From IMG/VR virus record IMGVR_UViG_3300025127_000070, positions 1 to 46,699 of that record: DNA of 46,699 nt. The stretch is one strand, 5' to 3'. A program made the translations under genes and the position numbers. Position 1 is the first letter of the stretch. Each line of letters begins with the position of its first letter. This document shows positions 2,046 to 37,796 of the stretch, in pieces. This DNA is from a virus. The notes beneath the pieces were generated by a model. That model saw only the letters and a list, made by a program, of their open reading frames with translations, made no database searches and was not told the DNA's origin.

Positions 2046-2531
2046 TTATACATAGGAAATATCACTAGGGTCAAGTATTGTTGCGATAATATTGTCATCA
2101 TTTATCAATCTTACCTCTAAATTCTCAACTTTAAAGCGATTTCCAGCATATCTTCCCATAAGAACCCAACTTTTCTCGGAACACCAAGCACCTGTTGGGA
2201 ATTTATTTTCATCAGTATAAGCATCTGGTCCTAATTTTACGACATACGCTGCGACTGTTGCAAAACTTTCACGATCTCGTGTCGCATCAGGAATGTAGAT
2301 ACCTCCTTTAGTTTGTGACTTCATGTAGTAAGGTATAACAAGTATTCTATATCCTACTGGTTGAGGAAGTCTTTCTAAAGCAGATGCTTCTAATTTAGAA
2401 GGGTCTTTAGAATTTGGATTATCTTCTATGTTTTGGAATCCTTTTTTAACTGCATCAGGTATTTCCATACTTATTGCTTGTTTTTTACGTGCATTAGCAA
2501 TTCTTTCAGGCACGAATAGTTTTTTAGCCAT
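2046..2531 (-). CDS. GroES-like co-chaperonin (phage Cpn10 type)
   Basis: A 161-residue protein whose residues about 55-155 resemble a GroES/Cpn10 beta-barrel: PVGYRILVIPYYM at the first strand, a glycine-containing loop (QTKGGIYIP) where GroES has its start after the mobile loop, VVKLGPDAY corresponding to the VVAVGxG strand, and a C-terminal EVRLINDDNIIATI strand. The N-terminal 50 residues are a basic extension. Phage co-chaperonins such as T4 gp31 replace host GroES so that GroEL can fold the capsid protein; that role is inferred here from fold pattern and head-gene context. The ATG overlaps the end of the preceding gene by 8 bases. Confidence 0.65.
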   Translation of the reverse strand: MAKKLFVPERIANARKKQAISMEIPDAVKKGFQNIEDNPNSKDPSKLEASALERLPQPVGYRILVIPYYMKSQTKGGIYIPDATRDRESFATVAAYVVKLGPDAYTDENKFPTGAWCSEKSWVLMGRYAGNRFKVENLEVRLINDDNIIATILDPSDISYV

Positions 2532-3569: not shown

Positions 3570-3843
3570 GCTTCTTTCTCCTTGCTGCCTCTACTCTTCT
3601 AGGCTTACCTGCTGGTTGACCTAATCTTTTCTTTTGAGCAACTCTTTTGGCTTTTTCAGAGCTTGACATCTCTCCTGCAGTTTTTGGGGTTTTAGAAGAG
3701 ATCCTCTTTGAGGGGCGGCAATATGGAGTACCCCGTTTTTCACCTTTGCTTCTCCCACAAGCCTTCCCCGTCCTGACATCTTTCCAATCCTCCTTAAACC
3801 AACGCTTTAATGCTAAACCAGCTTTTGTTTTGCGTACAGCCAT
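3550..3843 (-). CDS. Small very basic protein (DUF5872-like)
   Basis: A 97-residue Lys/Arg-rich protein beginning MAVRKTKAGLALKRWFKEDW and containing GRSKGEKRGTPYCRPSKR. This KRWFKEDWKDVRTGK type of sequence is found in small phage and protist-virus proteins of unknown function, thought to be DNA-associated. It is the same length as, and is joined by a 20-base overlap to, the next basic gene, so the two form a pair. It starts at a TAATG overlap with the gene before it. Confidence 0.6.
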   Translation of the reverse strand: MAVRKTKAGLALKRWFKEDWKDVRTGKACGRSKGEKRGTPYCRPSKRISSKTPKTAGEMSSSEKAKRVAQKKRLGQPAGKPRRVEAARRKKRGTKKR

Positions 3844-12212: not shown

Positions 12213-12496
12213 TACTTCTTTTTGGTTTTAGCCTTTACCTTCTTGATAGCATTTTTAAGATTGTTGACCTTGCCACCTCTCTTCATGCCTTTGGTTTTAA
12301 CCTTACCACCCATCTTCATGCCTTTAGCCATCATTTTTCTAGGTGAAACCTTACCACCCATAGCGTAGCCTTTTTTCTTAACCTTGCCACCCTTTTTCAT
12401 TTTGACTTTTCCACCCATCTTATAACCCTTTTTCTTCATCATCTTATTTGCTCCTTTACTGACTTGTTGAGGGATTTGTGATCTCGATATTGCCAT
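12212..12496 (-). CDS. Lys/Gly/Met repeat protein
   Basis: A 94-residue protein of extreme composition: Lys, Gly and Met make up most residues, with at least five repeats of the form MGGKV-KKKG (for example YKMGGKVKMKKGGKV and YAMGGKVSPRKM), then a Lys/Ala tail. Such a polycation suits binding of DNA or acidic protein in the virion. The GGKV unit is the purest form of the GG-hydrophobic motif found in other proteins here. TAATG overlaps on both sides place it in the same translation chain as its neighbours. Confidence 0.6.
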   Translation of the reverse strand: MAISRSQIPQQVSKGANKMMKKKGYKMGGKVKMKKGGKVKKKGYAMGGKVSPRKMMAKGMKMGGKVKTKGMKRGGKVNNLKNAIKKVKAKTKKK

Positions 12497-14526
12497 TATC
12501 TATACGCATTGATGAAATTGTCAATCGCAGAATCTAACTGATTGACAGAACCACCCTGTTGCATATTCTTAACGCCCATATTCTTAAATAAATCTTTAAA
12601 ATAATTCGCTGACAAAGATGTCGGGAAAATAGGTGTGTACTCTGTTGGCATCCTAAACTGTGGATAAGGCGAAATGTTACCTACATCAAAGCCTGGTACT
12701 CTATCTGATTCAACAACGACACTGCCATAATCAGGTTCAACAGGATCAGCGACAGGTGCATCTGGAGCAGGTGTTGTCGGCATACCACCTATACCACCTT
12801 GTGTGGGATCAGGAGTGGGTGGCAACATACTTTGTATCATGTCACGCAGTCTCTGCTCCTCTGCTAACTTTGCCGCTACTCTGTCTTGATCTCTACGTCT
12901 TGCTTCAGCAGCTCTGTCAGACGCTTCTTTTGTCTGTTGTGTTGTATAATATAAATCGTAAGGGCTTTTGCCAAAAACACTTTCGCCTATCTTGTTAACA
13001 ATAGGTGCAAACATACTCTCTTGAGATTTTAAAAACGCATCATATACAGGTCCTGTGCTTTCAACTTGATCTTCATCTCTTCTTAAATCATCATCAGATG
13101 TATCTCTTGGCGTAGATGTTGTTTTAAATATAGGAGTAGCACTGCCTAAGTCATCAATGTCTTTAATCACTCTTTCCTCTGTTCCTAAGTCATCAATGTC
13201 TCTTATGTCAACACGACCACCAACATTACCACTTATGTTACTAGAAAAATCTTCATATCTGTCTTTAGCAACACCACCAGCTCTAAATCCCTGAACAATG
13301 CCACCATCGTTAAATGAATCAACACCTTGTCCTGAAGGTGCTGTAAATTGAGTGTCTAAACCAAGAAACCTTAATAATTTTGCTAATCCTGTTAATTTAC
13401 GTAATTTAGGAACTTCATCTGTATTTAAATCCATCTCCCCAAATCTATCTATAAATGGAATTACGTCAAAAACATCAACATCAGGTCCTGATCGTTTTTC
13501 ACCCTCTGTAATCATTCTTGCTATTGTTTTCATTTCTTCAGGAGGAATAGTAGCTCCTAAAGTACCTAAATCATCTATGTCTCTTATATCACTATATATA
13601 GCTGAATCCCTTAACTCTTCAGGATCATCATATTCTTCTATTCCACCATCCTCTTCACCTATCAAAGACCTCAATACATTTAATTTAGGTTTTACAAAAG
13701 GCTTCGTAAGTTTTTCAAAAGTCAAAGATTTATCTGGTCCTTCCTCGTCAAAATAAATGAAAGGATCAATATCGCCCACTGTATCTACTCTAGGCTTTGA
13801 AACAGGCAACTGTATAGGTTTTCTCTTTGGAAGAGATATGCTTGTATCTGTGTCTTCTCCAACCCTTAACATATCGATATCCATTGGAAGGTTAGGCTTT
13901 GGAGCTGGTAATGAGATCGTAGGCTTTGTTGTTACAGGTTGCATAGTTTCAGCAAAACCCTTACCTGACTCATAATCATCTTCTAAAATTTTATTTATGG
14001 CAACAAGTGTTGACTCTGGCTCAACTATTGTAGGTGGTGGAGCTAACTCTGGCTGGTTTGCCTTCGCCATAGCTGCTTTCTCCATCTCATCAACCATGTC
14101 ACGAGACATAATCTGCGATACCATACGACCTTTATTCTCATCAAAGACAGGTCTAGTCCTTATTTTACCAGAATCATCAGTGGAAATAACAAAACCACCC
14201 TCATTCATGTACATTGGATCAAAAACATCGACCATACCACCCATATTCATAGGTCTTGGTGGCATCATAGGTGGTTGCATAGGTGGTTGCATAGGGGGCA
14301 TCATGCCCTGTGGTGGCATAGGTGGCATACCCATACCTGGTGGCATCATCGGAGGCTGTGGCTGTTGTGGAGGAACAGTATTTTCCGATATTCCCTGTAA
14401 ATATCCCGTAAATTTTGCTCTTTTAACGGGATCTATATCGTTGTTAAGAGAATTTGTACCAGAAGGAGCCGCTTGAGGAGCTACTCCCTTTTGTTGTGGC
14501 ATACCACCAAAAAATGAGTTCGTCAT
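12496..14526 (-). CDS. Large Pro/Met-rich structural-type protein
   Basis: A 676-residue protein. Residues about 50-105 are Pro/Met/Gly/Gln-rich (PPMMPPGMGMPPMPPQGMMPP and similar), followed by NMGGMVDVF and YMNEGGFV motifs. The middle is acidic with recurring RDIDDLG units (at least four: SDIRDIDDLGTLG, VDIRDIDDLGTEE, VIKDIDDLGSA), and FNDGGIVQGFRAGGV occurs further on. The C-terminus is a Pro-rich linker and a helical MQQGGSVNQLDSAIDNFINAYR. It looks disordered and multivalent, possibly a virion scaffold, fibre or tether. The start ATG has AAGG 7 bases upstream. No catalytic motif. Function unknown. Confidence 0.6.
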   Translation of the reverse strand: MTNSFFGGMPQQKGVAPQAAPSGTNSLNNDIDPVKRAKFTGYLQGISENTVPPQQPQPPMMPPGMGMPPMPPQGMMPPMQPPMQPPMMPPRPMNMGGMVDVFDPMYMNEGGFVISTDDSGKIRTRPVFDENKGRMVSQIMSRDMVDEMEKAAMAKANQPELAPPPTIVEPESTLVAINKILEDDYESGKGFAETMQPVTTKPTISLPAPKPNLPMDIDMLRVGEDTDTSISLPKRKPIQLPVSKPRVDTVGDIDPFIYFDEEGPDKSLTFEKLTKPFVKPKLNVLRSLIGEEDGGIEEYDDPEELRDSAIYSDIRDIDDLGTLGATIPPEEMKTIARMITEGEKRSGPDVDVFDVIPFIDRFGEMDLNTDEVPKLRKLTGLAKLLRFLGLDTQFTAPSGQGVDSFNDGGIVQGFRAGGVAKDRYEDFSSNISGNVGGRVDIRDIDDLGTEERVIKDIDDLGSATPIFKTTSTPRDTSDDDLRRDEDQVESTGPVYDAFLKSQESMFAPIVNKIGESVFGKSPYDLYYTTQQTKEASDRAAEARRRDQDRVAAKLAEEQRLRDMIQSMLPPTPDPTQGGIGGMPTTPAPDAPVADPVEPDYGSVVVESDRVPGFDVGNISPYPQFRMPTEYTPIFPTSLSANYFKDLFKNMGVKNMQQGGSVNQLDSAIDNFINAYR

Positions 14527-29595: not shown

Positions 29596-30222
29596 AACAG
29601 CCACAACGCAACTCAAATGAACCTAACTCAGCCAACCTCAACAGCCTAAACATAACTAACAGCACCTCTCCCCAAGATAGCACAACTCAACTGCCTTAAC
29701 CGAACCTACCTCACCCAAGCATAGTTGACCCAAACACAACTGCCAGAACAGACCCCAACTTAAAGCACCTCTCCATGACTCAAGAAAACGCACCAAATCC
29801 TAACACAACTGCCTGAACTTATCGCACCCCTACATAGAATATCGCACCTCACCCCAACTGCCACAACTAAACTTAACGAAAAATAACAGACCCTAGTTTA
29901 ACGCTCCATACCTGAACTGCCTAAACGGATCGCACCACAACGCACCCCTCCCAACCACAGACTAAAAAAACTCAACTGCCTCAACTGATCCTAACTGACC
30001 CAAGAAAACCCAACCCCTGCTGAACTGCCAAAAATTAACAGACCGAAACGTAACACACCTCGCCCAAGCATAACGGAACCCATCTGAACTGCCGTAACTT
30101 AACATATCCCAACGCAACATAATCCTAACTGACCTGTCCCCTCCTCAACACGACACAACAGCCTGAACATAACGCAACGCACCTCGACAAACATTAACGA
30201 GCCAGACCCCAAGAGGACTGCC
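29596..30222. repeat. Degenerate pentanucleotide array (AMCNN)n punctuated by AACTGCC
   Basis: No gene is possible here. On the plus strand the whole 630 bases read as about 125 pentamers A-[A/C]-C-N-N. In each block about 85-90 percent of pentamers have A in the first place, and C is nearly as constant in the third. The heptamer AACTGCC (or AACAGCC) restarts the series at 29596, 29640, 29689, 29738, 29807, 29856, 29915, 29974, 30023, 30087 and 30157, with a last variant at 30216. Spacings are 44, 49, 49, 69, 49, 59, 59, 49, 64, 70 and about 59. All but one equal 9+5k, because the heptamer moves the 5-base frame by one. The minus-strand transcript would be a NNGKU array. Not CRISPR: no identical repeats. 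Confidence 0.85.
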
Positions 30223-30223
30223 T

Positions 30224-30251
30224 AAAAAAGTGAGGCTTATATAGCCTCACT
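30224..30251 (-). terminator. Rho-independent terminator
   Basis: On the minus strand AGTGAGGC / GCCTCACT (8 perfect pairs, 7-base loop) is followed by six T. It overlaps the stop of the gene at 30237-30773 and borders the pentamer array exactly. Confidence 0.9.
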
Positions 30252-30773
30252 CTCCACACTATGTTCTTCTAAAGAATTTGCTACTTCTTCAAGGTTTTCT
30301 ATATCTACTTCTTTTACAGCACAGATACCTTTATATCTTTTAGTCCAAGATCTTAATTCTCTACAGGCTTGACGACATAACTCAGCAACAGTATCAGGGT
30401 TATCCAAGTCAAACTTTTGATAACCACCACCTTGTGCTCTACCATCTATAGGAGAGATGTAAGTAGGAAACTTTAACACCTTTGGTTCACTAATACCAAT
30501 ACTATTTGTTACATCAACAGGATCAGGTGTTACATCTTTATATTTAATTGTTATCCTACAACCTGAGAAAAACTGACGAATTTGTTGTATTTGATATTTA
30601 ATCGCAGCTTTTTCTTGATCCCACTCCAATACTTTATACATTGGGTGATCAGGCTGTGTAGACAACCATTCACGAAACTCGGCAGGAACAATAGTGTTCC
30701 TGCCTGTTTTATTTAGATAATCATCAACAATTGCTTGACGATCTCTTTTGCCAAATCTTTTAGGTTTAGCCAT
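30237..30773 (-). CDS. Conserved phage protein, unknown
   Basis: A 178-residue soluble protein (MAKPKRFGKRDRQAIVDDYLN...) with a basic N-terminus, a likely helical middle (EKAAIKYQIQQIRQFFSGC) and an acidic C-terminus (ENLEEVANSLEEHSVESEAI). It is the last gene of the recombination operon and is coupled (TAATG) to the upstream unknown gene. DNA-binding is plausible from charge; no family known to me. Confidence 0.55.
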   Translation of the reverse strand: MAKPKRFGKRDRQAIVDDYLNKTGRNTIVPAEFREWLSTQPDHPMYKVLEWDQEKAAIKYQIQQIRQFFSGCRITIKYKDVTPDPVDVTNSIGISEPKVLKFPTYISPIDGRAQGGGYQKFDLDNPDTVAELCRQACRELRSWTKRYKGICAVKEVDIENLEEVANSLEEHSVESEAI

Positions 30774-31555
30774 TAAGCAACTTCCTTAATAATAGCCGCT
30801 CTTTTAAGCCTCTCTTGCGTAATTGCTTCATAGAGTTCGTGGCTCATATTATCATGTGCCTCAATCTCAGGATTTTCTAAAGCAAGTTTTTGACAAGTAG
30901 CACCCTCTTCTTTGACTAGACGATCAAAAATCTTTTGATCATCTTTTGTTTGGACGATCCTATATCCTCCCATCGGACCACCCTTTTCAATTCGCCAATC
31001 ACCCAAGCCACATAACGTGCCTGCATTAACGAGCAATGCCGTAATGTCAAGCTGACTAAACGTAGGGTTAATATAACGAATTGTAACTTCAGTACACCAA
31101 TTAGGTAATTTAGCACGGGTGCGAATATCAGGTGTTCTGTTTATATCAGAAGAACGAACAACAGACATATTCATATAGGGTTTACCCCATACGTTAATAT
31201 GTTCACCCACAACATAGATACCACGATTGATACTAGCTTTTGTTACACCAGCAGTTTCAAGAGCCGCAGTTGCCATGCCTCTCTTAATACCTGTGGACGG
31301 GAAACTAAGATAAGAACCATTAGTGCCATTGATATAACAACTATCTACAAACTCCTCTTCAGGATTATGTTTGATTTCTTTTTTCTCAGCGGCAGTCTTC
31401 TTCGCTGCACCCATAAGCAAAGTCTTTTGTGCTTTCAAAGACATTGAATTGTAAATTAAAGGTGCAGTGCCTATGATTTTAAAAGACACCTCTGTCTGTT
31501 GTAATGATTCAATACTTAACCCCATTTCTTTAACTGTAGTTTTTTTAGCGACCAT
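30773..31555 (-). CDS. Conserved phage protein with GLGDWR motif, unknown
   Basis: A 260-residue protein: VSFKIIGTAPLIYNSMS (beta start), a Lys/Ala-rich linker, NPEEEFVDSCYIN, SYLSFPSTGIKRGMATAA, then RTRAKLPNWCTEVTIRY and GTLCGLGDWRIEKGGPMGGYRI. This pattern recurs in phages near recombination genes, but I do not know an assigned function. Its repeated beta-turn and Gly-rich GLGDWR-type end recall RNA-recognition-like folds, which is only an impression. It sits in the operon with DUF669-like and RecA-like proteins. Confidence 0.55.
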   Translation of the reverse strand: MVAKKTTVKEMGLSIESLQQTEVSFKIIGTAPLIYNSMSLKAQKTLLMGAAKKTAAEKKEIKHNPEEEFVDSCYINGTNGSYLSFPSTGIKRGMATAALETAGVTKASINRGIYVVGEHINVWGKPYMNMSVVRSSDINRTPDIRTRAKLPNWCTEVTIRYINPTFSQLDITALLVNAGTLCGLGDWRIEKGGPMGGYRIVQTKDDQKIFDRLVKEEGATCQKLALENPEIEAHDNMSHELYEAITQERLKRAAIIKEVA

Positions 31556-34316: not shown

Positions 34317-34752
34317 CTTCTTCCATACGCTTACATAAACGCTCAGCCCTGTTTGTTACCTGACGATACCATCTGGAATCACGCATCTGATTTGCACTTT
34401 CCTGCCAATTGCCGTCCATGACAGCTTGTATATGTTTACGAAATCTGCTGTAACGCGGCAATCCGAGATTGAACATCATATTCGCTATTATTTGTTTTAC
34501 GGGCTCTGGCAATTTATCCCAATCATCATAAACTTTTTTGCAATCCATAATCACACTTCGTATGTCTTGCTCAAAAAGCTCTGTCACTCTTTCTTCAGAT
34601 ATTTTTGTGCCTAAAGGTAAATCATATTCTGGGTCATCTTCACGACACAGATGACCTATGCCACAAGTCTTTAGCGAGAGGTGATCGAGATAAGTCTCAT
34701 ACTTGACCCCCTCGTCAATGATAAGTTGTTCTCTTAATTTTTCTAAATCCAT
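34303..34752 (-). CDS. GH24 phage lysozyme (endolysin)
   Basis: A 149-residue lysozyme of the T4-lysozyme family. The catalytic set Glu14, Asp23 and Thr29 (DEGVKYETYLDHLSLKTCGIGH) keeps the 9 and 6 residue spacing of T4 lysozyme Glu11-Asp20-Thr26. The C-terminal part has MMFNLGLPRYSRF and a basic helical end. No signal or membrane anchor is seen, so it needs a holin; the holin-like gene is at 2722-3126. It follows the internal virion protein gene by one base and converges with the ribbon-helix-helix gene. Confidence 0.85.
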   Translation of the reverse strand: MDLEKLREQLIIDEGVKYETYLDHLSLKTCGIGHLCREDDPEYDLPLGTKISEERVTELFEQDIRSVIMDCKKVYDDWDKLPEPVKQIIANMMFNLGLPRYSRFRKHIQAVMDGNWQESANQMRDSRWYRQVTNRAERLCKRMEEVKPA

Positions 34753-37700
34753 TATATTTTTCCTTGATTTAATCTTTGTGCTAATGCTTGAGTTTTAGGA
34801 TTGGTAATAATCGAGGGATTTGTAGCTAAACTTGATTGTGGCTGTCCTACATTAATTTGTCCTAACACAGACGCTGGACTTGGTTGTGGTATATTTTGTT
34901 GTATATTTGATAATTGATTACTTACATTTTGAAGCTGTGGTGTATTTTTAATTATGGCTCTTGCTTGATTCGTTGTTTCATCTACACCTGATTGTAATTG
35001 TTGAACTGATGATTGTCTTAATATTCCGTTGATAACACTACCAAGAATTTTAGATCTTCTTTCATTTGGAATATTATTTGTCGCTCTGTAAGCATCAGTA
35101 ATTTGTTGTCTTGCAGCTTTTCCTGTAAATAATTGACCTATAATTGTAATACGAGCAATTCTACCTATGTTACTCATAAAATTTGTTGCGATATTTCCTG
35201 CAACTAAATCTCCTGCTGGTTGATCTGATGCTATTAATTTAATTACTTTTGCAAAATCTTTTATTTCTTCTGCCTCTTTTTTACCAAATATAACAGCAAG
35301 TTTACCACCAGACTTACCATCCGATTTTAATATTCTATTTGCTAATTGATCTAAATCTTTTGCATTTTTAGTAACACCAATTCCATCTAATGCTTTCTCT
35401 ATAAAACTAGCTTGTATTGTTTTTACAGCTTTATCATCGCCCTCATAATATTTCATTATACGTTTTAATTCGTTAATTTTTGTAGTGTTGCTATTAACTA
35501 AATCAACGACTTCATCAGGGCTATCAATGTAATCACCATCATTTATTTTTTTAAATAAACCACGTTTATTTATAGCATTAGCATTTTGACCAGCTTCTTT
35601 TAATAATCTTAAATTACCAACTAAATCAATTTCTTCTGGTAAAACATTTTCTGTTTTTGCTGCAAAATCATTAATCATATCGTCAGTAATGTTTGTTAAA
35701 TTAAGATCTTCAAAATCATCAGCAAATTTTTTAATTTGTGAATACTGAGCTTTTCCAAACAATTCATCTCCAGTTTTACCTAAAGCATAAACTGACTCTT
35801 TAAATTTCAAAGGATTAAATTTTTTAGGGTTTATTGAATCAAAACCAGTATCTTTTAAATTTTGTCTTAACCATGCACCACTTAGACGTTTTTTAAGATT
35901 ATTAAATTTAGTGCCTCCACCCATAGCCTGTCCTAACTTTTGCAAGTTCTTTGGCTTATCATTTTTAATAACTTTCATAACGCTGTCTTCTAAATCAGCT
36001 TTTGTAAACTGACCAGCATTTAATTTTCCCAATAAATTTTTTGTTCCTATTGAAGTTCCTATATCATTAAAAAATTGTGCACCTTCAGCATAGGCACGTC
36101 TTGCTTCTCCAATTTGTTGAGAGCCTAATCTTATTTTTTCAGCATCTTCAGCAGTTATTTTTTTCTGACCAATTAATTTTTTTAAAAAAGGATCAATACT
36201 TTCTTGACTTATTTCTAAACTGTCATCAAACGCATCTTCTATTTGTTTCATATATCTTTTTAAATTAATAGATGGTGCAACTATTTCCTGTAATGTTTTA
36301 TTTGAACCTGCAACAGGTATTTCACCAATACCTAATTGACTATTTTTAAATGCTTTTCTTTGTGCATAAATATTAGCAAAACTTGCCGCTCTTGTTCCAT
36401 CTGATGCTTCTGTTCCAACTGTTTTTAGTGATTGCACTATTTTAGCTGCAGCTAGTTGTTGTTCATCACCAGCACCTCTAGGCACTACACTAATACCTTC
36501 GTCTGTTTGTCTAACAGTTAAACCAAATCTTCTTATCATGTTTTCTGCTATTTCATCTATAGCAGTCGTGGGAAGTATATTCGCTGATCCAGCACCAGAT
36601 TCTAAAAGATTATTAATATTTTGAAAATTAGTTGCAGACACATCTTCAAATACTTTGAATGTTTGATTTAATTGTGCAAACAATTGTTCGCTTACTTTTT
36701 CATTTTTACCTAATCCACCACTTAAAACATCAGCAGCTTCTTTTAAATTTTTATTTATTTCATCAAGTGCATCTCTTTGAGCTTTAATAAATTTTGTTCC
36801 AGCGTTTTTAGACATATCTAAAAACAAATCTCCAGCTAATCTGTCATCATTAGATTGAGCTTGTTTTATAAAATTATTATATTCATCAAGTTTTGTTTGT
36901 AGAGCTTTAAAATTAGCTGCAGTTCTTGGAGATTGTCCTATAACTTTTTCCATTATTGATTCTATTCTTGCTGGTATAGGTCCTAAATCCATTTGTTGTT
37001 TACTTAATTGAAATCCCATTTCTTGTGCTTTGCCTGCCAATTGTAATTTTTCTCCACCTTCTTTTACAATTCCTGCACTAGGAGCTAGAGCTTTAAAAGC
37101 TAAAAACGGAATACCGAAAGCAAGCTCACCAGCACCTGCATAAAGAGCCTCTTTGCCTGCATCTTTTAATATTTCTTTTGCTGATTGTTTTGATACACCA
37201 GATAGACCTTCAATTGCTTCTTCTCCTAGTGAACCAGTAAATGCACCTCCAGCTGCACCAATAGCACCACCAATAAGTGTGCCTACAGGTCCAAGTGCAG
37301 TTCCTACTGCAGCACCCTTTAGTCCTCCAGCGACAGCACCACCTACCTCTGGAACAATGCCTGCTAAATCTGCGATATCATACCTACTAAAACCACTTTC
37401 ATCAATAATAATGTTTTTATCTGTATCTACACCAAATTTACTTGCACCACTTGGTGTCAAAGCAAATTGTCCTCTATTGTCTTGCGTGTAATCATTAGAT
37501 GTTAAACCAAATTTTTGCAATACAGCTTCTTTTTCAGCGTCATTTTCTACAGCAGATAAAGAGGCACGGAGCTTAGCATTTTTTATTCCAGTGGTTCTGT
37601 CGAACATTTGTTCGTCTTCTGCTTGTGCTTTTGCTTGTTGTTGAAAGTCTATTTCTGCAAGACCTTTACCTCTTTTAGAATAAGCATCATCTCCTCTTAA

Positions 37701-37796
37701 ATCTTTATAAGCATTAGCTACAGTTTCAAATTCAGGAGTTCCTTTTTTATCTTGATTAGATACTAACCAGTTTGCATATTTATCTATACGATCCAT
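34752..37796 (-). CDS. Large internal virion (DNA-ejection) protein
   Basis: A 1014-residue protein. The N-terminal 100 residues are polar; about 145-190 is a Gly/Ala-rich hydrophobic segment with GG repeats (VGGAVAGGLKGAAVGTALG), like membrane-penetrating parts of podovirus internal proteins. The rest is helical, Lys/Asp/Asn-rich. Tail-side position next to two further such proteins suggests a DNA-ejection protein of the T7 gp15/gp16 or P22 gp16/gp20 kind. No lytic transglycosylase motif was recognised. A tape-measure role is an alternative. Confidence 0.6.
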   Translation of the reverse strand: MDRIDKYANWLVSNQDKKGTPEFETVANAYKDLRGDDAYSKRGKGLAEIDFQQQAKAQAEDEQMFDRTTGIKNAKLRASLSAVENDAEKEAVLQKFGLTSNDYTQDNRGQFALTPSGASKFGVDTDKNIIIDESGFSRYDIADLAGIVPEVGGAVAGGLKGAAVGTALGPVGTLIGGAIGAAGGAFTGSLGEEAIEGLSGVSKQSAKEILKDAGKEALYAGAGELAFGIPFLAFKALAPSAGIVKEGGEKLQLAGKAQEMGFQLSKQQMDLGPIPARIESIMEKVIGQSPRTAANFKALQTKLDEYNNFIKQAQSNDDRLAGDLFLDMSKNAGTKFIKAQRDALDEINKNLKEAADVLSGGLGKNEKVSEQLFAQLNQTFKVFEDVSATNFQNINNLLESGAGSANILPTTAIDEIAENMIRRFGLTVRQTDEGISVVPRGAGDEQQLAAAKIVQSLKTVGTEASDGTRAASFANIYAQRKAFKNSQLGIGEIPVAGSNKTLQEIVAPSINLKRYMKQIEDAFDDSLEISQESIDPFLKKLIGQKKITAEDAEKIRLGSQQIGEARRAYAEGAQFFNDIGTSIGTKNLLGKLNAGQFTKADLEDSVMKVIKNDKPKNLQKLGQAMGGGTKFNNLKKRLSGAWLRQNLKDTGFDSINPKKFNPLKFKESVYALGKTGDELFGKAQYSQIKKFADDFEDLNLTNITDDMINDFAAKTENVLPEEIDLVGNLRLLKEAGQNANAINKRGLFKKINDGDYIDSPDEVVDLVNSNTTKINELKRIMKYYEGDDKAVKTIQASFIEKALDGIGVTKNAKDLDQLANRILKSDGKSGGKLAVIFGKKEAEEIKDFAKVIKLIASDQPAGDLVAGNIATNFMSNIGRIARITIIGQLFTGKAARQQITDAYRATNNIPNERRSKILGSVINGILRQSSVQQLQSGVDETTNQARAIIKNTPQLQNVSNQLSNIQQNIPQPSPASVLGQINVGQPQSSLATNPSIITNPKTQALAQRLNQGKI

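What the first reader, a model, noticed from the sequence alone, without database searches (positions are those of the whole stretch)
29596..30222. Two-level pentanucleotide array (AMCNN)n with AACTGCC frame-shifting punctuation
Seen directly: about 630 bases without genes follow a 5-base period (A, A/C, C, any, any) on the plus strand. Eleven AACTGCC/AACAGCC heptamers, plus a final variant, restart the series with spacings 44, 49, 49, 69, 49, 59, 59, 49, 64, 70 and about 59, all but one equal to 9+5k. Each heptamer moves the 5-base phase by one, so the period is reset rather than kept. Most spacings also differ by 10, near one helix turn. The array fills exactly the space from a strong terminator to the ribosome site of the MT-A70 gene. 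The minus-strand RNA would be an NNGKU array. Period-5 RNA arrays are known for the TRAP regulator (KAGNN repeats); this one has other bases and is ten times longer. It could be a protein-coated leader RNA, an origin, a packaging or partition site, or a decoy. I know of no described element like it.
Basis: seen in the sequence. Interest (0 to 1): 0.95.

Follow-up and report, generated by a model that had tools for sequence, protein, structure and literature searches.

The report
Phage guide-RNA array targeting rival phages
This stretch of a marine phage genome is a bank of about eleven guide RNAs of the recently described VIPR type (relatives of CRISPR); one guide spells out the start of the DNA polymerase gene of rival T7-like phages, so it is most likely a weapon in phage-against-phage conflict.

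Summary
29596-30222 has a very strong 5-base period, and eleven spacer lengths of 9+5k with one exception. It is not an unknown element. It is the vrRNA (guide) array of a VIPR system (preprint PMC13142463, 2026), read on the minus strand as NN-GKT units. Two genes upstream lies vipr (30773-31555), a RAMP/Cas7-like protein; its family profile matches the solved SUSP1 Vipr (E=1.2e-14) and its predicted fold matches Csm/Cas7. Between them is a conserved partner gene (30237-30773). Every array-bearing relative has both genes wherever the contig reaches that far; array-less relatives have neither. The heptamer GGCAGTT is two triplets, GGC and GTT, separated by one base instead of two. That explains the phase shift and the 9+5k lengths: each cassette is one guide. 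Read with VIPR's 1-nucleotide skip, the 29745-29813 guide spells codons 1-13 of a T7-like phage DNA polymerase, M-R-L-A-F-D-I-E-A-N-G-L-L. Guides of sister phages hit ribonucleotide reductase of Roseobacter phages (30/32 and 25/26 bases). Skips of 0, 2 or 3 gave no hit at E<0.01. Targets of the other window guides remain unknown. Verdict: a new member of a known kind, with a relaxed GKT consensus and staggered cassettes.

The parts
30773..31555 (-). vipr gene, 260 aa, RAMP/Cas7-like guide-RNA-binding protein with glycine-rich loop (GLGDWRIEKGGPMGG)
   Evidence: phrog_4652 1.2e-13; phmmer to PDB 36pp SUSP1 Vipr E=0.0013, family profile 1.2e-14; AF2 model pLDDT 81.6, Foldseek top hits all Csm/Cas7 subunits
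30237..30773 (-). candidate vap (VIPR accessory) gene, 178 aa, phrog_15946 family, overlaps vipr by one base; function unknown, predicted mostly helical at low confidence
   Evidence: conserved beside vipr and array in the array loci and in actinophage VIPR loci; model pLDDT 69, no fold match
30224..30252 (-). strong hairpin followed by a T-run, overlapping the 3' end of the vap gene, directly before the array
   Evidence: -20.1 kcal/mol, z -4.92; absent from some relatives
29596..30222 (-). vrRNA (guide) array: 11 cassettes of form GGC-A-GTT-(NN-GKT)k-NN plus a closing GGCTGTT
30164..30222 (-). guide cassette 1 (59), heptamer variant GGCAGTC, NN = CT-GG-CT-TC-AA-TT-GA-GC-GC-AT-CA
30094..30163 (-). 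guide cassette 2 (70), heptamer GGCTGTT, carries a 1-base T insertion relative to sister phages
30030..30093 (-). guide cassette 3 (64), NN = CA-GG-CC-AT-TG-GA-GT-AC-TC-CT-AA-TT
   Evidence: no target found
29981..30029 (-). guide cassette 4 (49), NN = CA-GG-TG-TT-TG-CA-AG-CA-GA
29922..29980 (-). guide cassette 5 (59), NN = GA-TT-AG-GT-TG-GG-GC-GT-GC-CC-TA; NN identical in eight sister variants whose triplets differ
29863..29921 (-). guide cassette 6 (59), NN = CA-AT-GC-AA-AG-CT-AT-TC-AA-TA-GT
29814..29862 (-). guide cassette 7 (49), NN = GG-GA-GC-AT-AT-GG-GC-AA-CA
29745..29813 (-). guide cassette 8 (69), NN = GT-AG-TT-GC-TT-GA-AT-GA-GC-AA-GG-CT-CT; decodes to codons 1-13 of T7-like phage DNA polymerase
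29696..29744 (-). guide cassette 9 (49), NN = GT-TG-CA-AT-TG-GA-AG-CG-AA
29647..29695 (-). guide cassette 10 (49), NN = GA-GT-AT-GG-GA-GC-TA-AT-TA
29603..29646 (-). guide cassette 11 (44), heptamer GGCTGTT, NN = GA-TG-GA-AG-CA-GA-GC-GT

Best explanation
The array is a bank of guide RNAs (vrRNAs) of a phage-borne VIPR system. Vipr (30773-31555) polymerises along the RNA, one subunit per five-base unit. It holds the G-K-T triplet of each unit and leaves the NN pair free. The 8-13 NN pairs of one cassette together base-pair with double-stranded DNA, skipping one target base after each pair, and the bound complex silences the target gene. Each GGC-A-GTT junction, with one base between triplets instead of two, ends one guide and starts the next. 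The guides are aimed at competing phages. Cassette 8 is aimed at the start codon and exonuclease motif of T7-like phage DNA polymerase; sister arrays also aim at ribonucleotide reductase. Because the skipped base falls on the wobble position, synonymous changes in the target do not help it escape. Shown here: the array, the vipr homology, co-occurrence of the genes with the array, and target matches under the 1-base skip. Inferred from the published system: RNA expression, filament binding and silencing.
For: Vipr identity by sequence and predicted fold. The vipr and phrog_15946 genes are found with every array locus whose contig reaches them, and not in array-less relatives with full flanks. 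The same GGCAGTT/NN-GGY-type arrays sit beside vipr in otherwise different phages, including isolates of Mycobacterium and Gordonia with a GGC-A-GGC junction. NN pairs are conserved within cassette families relative to their variability between families: NN-to-triplet ratio 0.44, bootstrap 0.28-0.71, the opposite of a pure binding-site repeat. Targets: the seed of guide 8 hits at least 120 viral contigs; 15-base-equivalent and 16-base seeds of two other guides gave 44 and 4. The family-consensus match to L416 is 26/26 and begins exactly at its ATG. The target ORF is Pfam DNA_pol_A, 3.8e-40. In 11 isolate genomes not chosen by guide match, 1-base skip gave guide families at 30/32 (E 6e-9) and 25/26 (E 2e-8), both in ribonucleotide reductase, in frame. 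Skips 0, 2 and 3 gave none at E<0.01; shuffled guides 2 of 540.
Against: No expression data exist for this phage. Only one of the eleven window guides has a convincing target; exact or seed scans for guides 3, 5 and 7 found nothing convincing. The triplet is GKT rather than strict GGY. A strong hairpin with T-run lies directly before the array and no clear promoter was found, so how the array is transcribed is open. The DNA-polymerase match was first found by a seed scan, and L416 was fetched that way; in the unselected isolates that guide family reaches only 23/26 (E 0.001).
Confidence: 0.94

Rival explanations
1. A period-5 RNA array bound by a TRAP-like ring protein that regulates the downstream MT-A70/helicase operon.
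For: Triplet plus two-base spacer geometry; position between two operons.
Against: The triplet is GKT, not KAG. No TRAP family among the window proteins tested. In some relatives the order of genes around the array differs, and a separate promoter-like sequence can be seen by eye between array and operon. NN pairs are conserved within cassette families and decode to real target genes, which a spacer would not do.
Confidence: 0.02
2. A DNA element: replication origin, packaging site or partition site built of repeated protein-binding sites.
For: Non-coding, near replication and recombination genes.
Against: Cassettes differ in sequence, order and number between sister phages while vipr is always present. 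The information sits in the NN pairs, which match other phages' genes.
Confidence: 0.02
3. VIPR guide array, but used to regulate the phage's own or the host's genes rather than competitors.
For: Most window guides have no target found; VIPR silencing could in principle act on any DNA.
Against: No window guide matches its own genome with a 1-base skip beyond 12-17 of 16-26 bases. The targets found are in T7-like phages.
Confidence: 0.06

Closest known systems
VIPR (Viral Interference Programmable Repeat), phage SUSP1 type II and relatives (PMC13142463)
   Same: Phage-borne; Vipr RAMP protein; guide RNAs of five-base units with constant triplet and variable NN pair; 1-base skip targeting; skip on the wobble base; targets in competing phages.
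   Different: Triplet here is G-K-T (second base T 49%, G 34% in the window clade). Eleven guides in one punctuated array with one-base junctions instead of separate guides with a structured 3' tail. Different partner gene (phrog_15946). Targets are marine T7-like phages. The preprint mentions 'staggered arrays with overlapping vrRNAs' and 'a related consensus'; its supplement could not be read, so these may be the same thing.
VIPR-like loci of actinophages (Mycobacterium phage Saal, Gordonia phages UmaThurman and ODay)
   Same: vipr, phrog_15946 gene and array together; cassettes reset by a one-base junction GGC-A-GGC.
   Different: Strict GGY triplets, GC-rich; array between or before the two genes.
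CRISPR class 1 (Cas7 and Csm backbone with crRNA)
   Same: RAMP-fold backbone protein and a bank of guides against mobile elements.
   Different: No long direct repeats and no cas operon seen among the proteins checked; guide read noncontiguously.
TRAP regulator and its KAGNN arrays
   Same: Triplet plus two-base spacer RNA array.
   Different: Other triplet, no TRAP protein found, spacers carry the information.

Membership tests
VIPR | Vipr protein, a RAMP homologue | tested here: met
   Family profile to 36pp Vipr E=1.2e-14; Foldseek to Csm/Cas7
VIPR | vrRNA of 9-16 tandem five-base units, GGY (or related) alternating with variable NN | tested here: met
   8-13 NN per cassette; triplet first base G 84%, second T/G, third T 89%; relaxed consensus
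VIPR | NN pairs match DNA targets with a one-base skip | tested here: met
   only skip 1 gives E<1e-3; shuffled controls near zero
VIPR | Targets are competing mobile elements, skip on wobble base | tested here: met
   DNA polymerase and ribonucleotide reductase genes of T7-like phages, in frame
VIPR | Accessory vap gene beside vipr | tested here: inconclusive
   A conserved neighbour family exists but could not be matched to vap1-6 (supplement not readable)
VIPR | RNA expressed and bound by Vipr; target silenced | not testable with these tools
   Needs experiment
VIPR type II (SUSP1) | Each vrRNA capped by an invariant structured 3' tail | tested here: not met
   Cassettes follow each other with only GGC-A-GTT between them
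CRISPR-Cas | Direct repeats with spacers plus cas genes | tested here: not met
   Only a 7-base junction recurs; no CRISPR effector or adaptation genes among the window proteins checked, the Cas4-domain exonuclease being a phage recombination type
TRAP/TrpBP array | KAG triplets and an mtrB-like protein | tested here: not met
   GKT triplets; no TrpBP hit in the proteins scanned

The most novel reading that the evidence does not exclude
A distinct VIPR type in which one staggered precursor RNA with a relaxed G-K-T scaffold carries a dozen guides. The guides are swapped between related marine phages like cards, and are aimed at protein motifs that cannot change (polymerase exonuclease motif at the start codon, ribonucleotide reductase motifs), so that the variants of one guide follow the natural codon variation of the target.
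Probability: 0.35. Interest if true: 0.75.

Novelty: new member of a known kind. Interest (0 to 1): 0.62.

Why it matters
VIPR was reported only in 2026, from a few cultured phages. This gives an independent confirmation, from sequence alone, of its one-base-skip code in uncultivated ocean phages, explains the punctuation of staggered arrays, and identifies natural targets: replication and nucleotide-supply genes of T7-like phages of the groups that infect Roseobacter and SAR11. It makes the ecology of phage-against-phage silencing in the sea testable, and shows how such arrays can be found and decoded.

Tried and rejected
Rfam on the window: no match. Structured RNA: the array as a whole folds no better than shuffles (z -0.96). 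BLASTN of the array against phage isolates: nothing. Pattern scan of bacterial genomes: among the hits looked at, only coding repeats and chance matches. First target scan in 1.9 Mb of held sequence: nothing above shuffles. Exact IMG/VR scans of guides 5 and 7: none. Seed scan of guide 3: 44 hits, at most 20/24, judged chance. Seed scan of guide 5: four hits, best 19/22 in L530, antisense to a tail-sheath-like ORF, judged chance. Degenerate-peptide search for the other guides: nothing. Helix-turn spacing idea rejected. Whole-array conservation as a plain binding repeat rejected.

Full report
WHAT WAS CHECKED. The period-5 signal is far beyond chance: lag-5 identity 0.426 against 0.308 +/- 0.020, none of 1000 Markov simulations reaching it; the six strongest period-5 windows of the whole record all lie in this array. 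All listed spacings are exact. The odd spacing of 70 comes from a one-base T insertion relative to sister phages. The window is a 46.7 kb virus record from IMG/VR, with an SU10-type portal family, a terminase closest to phage 023Pt_psg01, Pelagibacter phages HTVC027P and HTVC023P and phage DSL-LC04, and Sak4 and Cas4-type recombination genes.

ANATOMY. Reading the minus strand, which is the coding strand of all neighbours, the array is a series of cassettes GGC-A-GTT-NN-(GKT-NN)k. The heptamer GGCAGTT is not a separate signal: it is the last triplet of one cassette (GGC) and the first triplet of the next (GTT) with one base between them instead of two. This alone produces the phase shift of one and lengths of 9+5k. 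The same junction appears as GGC-A-GGC in Gordonia phage UmaThurman and Mycobacterium phage Saal. Immediately upstream, in one operon, lie a 260-aa gene (30773-31555) and a 178-aa gene (30237-30773) that overlap by one base. A strong hairpin with a T-run separates them from the array, but some relatives lack it, so the array may be reached by read-through; this is inference.

RELATIVES. Searches with the 178-aa protein and the helicase brought in related marine contigs. Those with the array form a group clearly separated by period-5 score from those without (2.6-3.9 against at most 1.74). Profiles of the 260-aa and 178-aa proteins hit the array-bearing contigs wherever they reach far enough, and none of the array-less relatives, including those with 6 kb flanks. 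Cassettes are shared between sister phages but in different order and number. A scan for three spaced heptamers found the same architecture, with GGT, GGC or mixed triplets, beside the same two gene families in quite different phages.

IDENTITY. The 260-aa protein belongs to phrog_4652. It matches the solved 'SUSP1 Vipr protein' 36pp by single-sequence search (E 0.0013) and by family profile over nearly its full length (E 1.2e-14). Its predicted structure (mean pLDDT 81.6) finds Csm and Cas7 subunits of CRISPR effector complexes as top matches. The preprint PMC13142463 describes VIPR: a phage-encoded ancestral RAMP protein with guide RNAs of GGY/NN units that recognise double-stranded DNA through the NN pairs with a one-base skip, acting against competing phages.

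TEST OF THE CODE. If NN pairs carry information, they should be conserved within cassette families although they vary freely between families. Relative to its variability, NN changes less than the triplets: ratio 0.44, bootstrap 0.28-0.71. One family keeps all eleven NN pairs through eight variants whose triplets differ.

TARGETS. A seed from cassette 8 (16 specified bases, one-base skip) hit at least 120 IMG/VR contigs, whereas seeds from cassettes 3 (15 base equivalents) and 5 (16 bases) gave 44 and 4. Extended over all 26 bases, the family consensus matches contig L416 at 26/26 (window guide alone 24/26). The match starts exactly at the ATG of a 589-aa ORF beginning MRLAFDIEANGLL, a family A DNA polymerase (Pfam 3.8e-40) of T7 type. 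The two window mismatches are GT for AT at the start codon and TT for CT, both leucine. Sister guides replace F by Y, A by T and N by D, the kind of variation also seen in isolate polymerases (FDIETNG, FDIETDG). L416 was fetched by the seed, so a fairer test used 11 complete isolate genomes chosen only by polymerase similarity. Of 135 guide families, with skip 1 two reach E<1e-4 and five E<0.01; with skips 0, 2 or 3 none; shuffled guides 2 of 540 at E<0.01. The hits are ribonucleotide reductase of Roseobacter phages CRP-113, 361, 125, 227 and 114: ANYRQTCVNLDDGILQ (30/32), DLGYAYLPQEVVT (25/26) and LLLQGCGVGFEPV (22/26); and the polymerase start of pelagiphages HTVC019P and HTVC201P (23/26, window family); the fifth, weaker hit (18/20, from L161) is in the capsid gene region of pelagiphage Eistla. 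The matches cover whole cassettes, which shows that one cassette is one guide. The polymerase and reductase matches are all in frame on the coding strand with the skipped base at the wobble position.

LIMITS. Ten of eleven window guides have no convincing target. Transcription, processing at the junction and silencing are not shown here. The role of the 178-aa partner is unknown (low-confidence helical model, no fold match). The VIPR type cannot be assigned without the supplement.

VERDICT. A genuine VIPR guide array: a new member of a known, very recent kind, with a relaxed triplet and a staggered multi-guide layout, aimed at least in part at T7-like marine phages.

Noticed in passing
L330:3620-3928, L331:2609-2803, L332:3629-3769: Array of GGY/NN units with GGC-A-GGC junctions, without an annotated RNA feature, beside vipr and phrog_15946 homologues in Gordonia phages UmaThurman and ODay and Mycobacterium phage Saal.
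   Followed up: partly
L333:2330-2382 and 3589-3641: Felixounavirus tootiki has single GGY/NN guides flanking its vipr gene, annotated only as repeat_region.
   Followed up: partly
L045, L052, L046, L049, L043 between array and helicase: Extra conserved block by eye: inverted repeat, promoter-like TTGACA and a possibly structured leader, absent from the window.
   Followed up: no
window 30094-30163: One-base T insertion that breaks the 5-base phase inside a guide; may inactivate that guide.
   Followed up: partly
window 34752-37796 and 12496-14526: Large ORFs of 1014 and 676 aa with no PHROG family match; the 1014-aa one also has no match in isolate phage genomes.
   Followed up: no
window 2046-2531: A GroES-like (Cpn10) co-chaperonin gene in the phage.
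   Followed up: no
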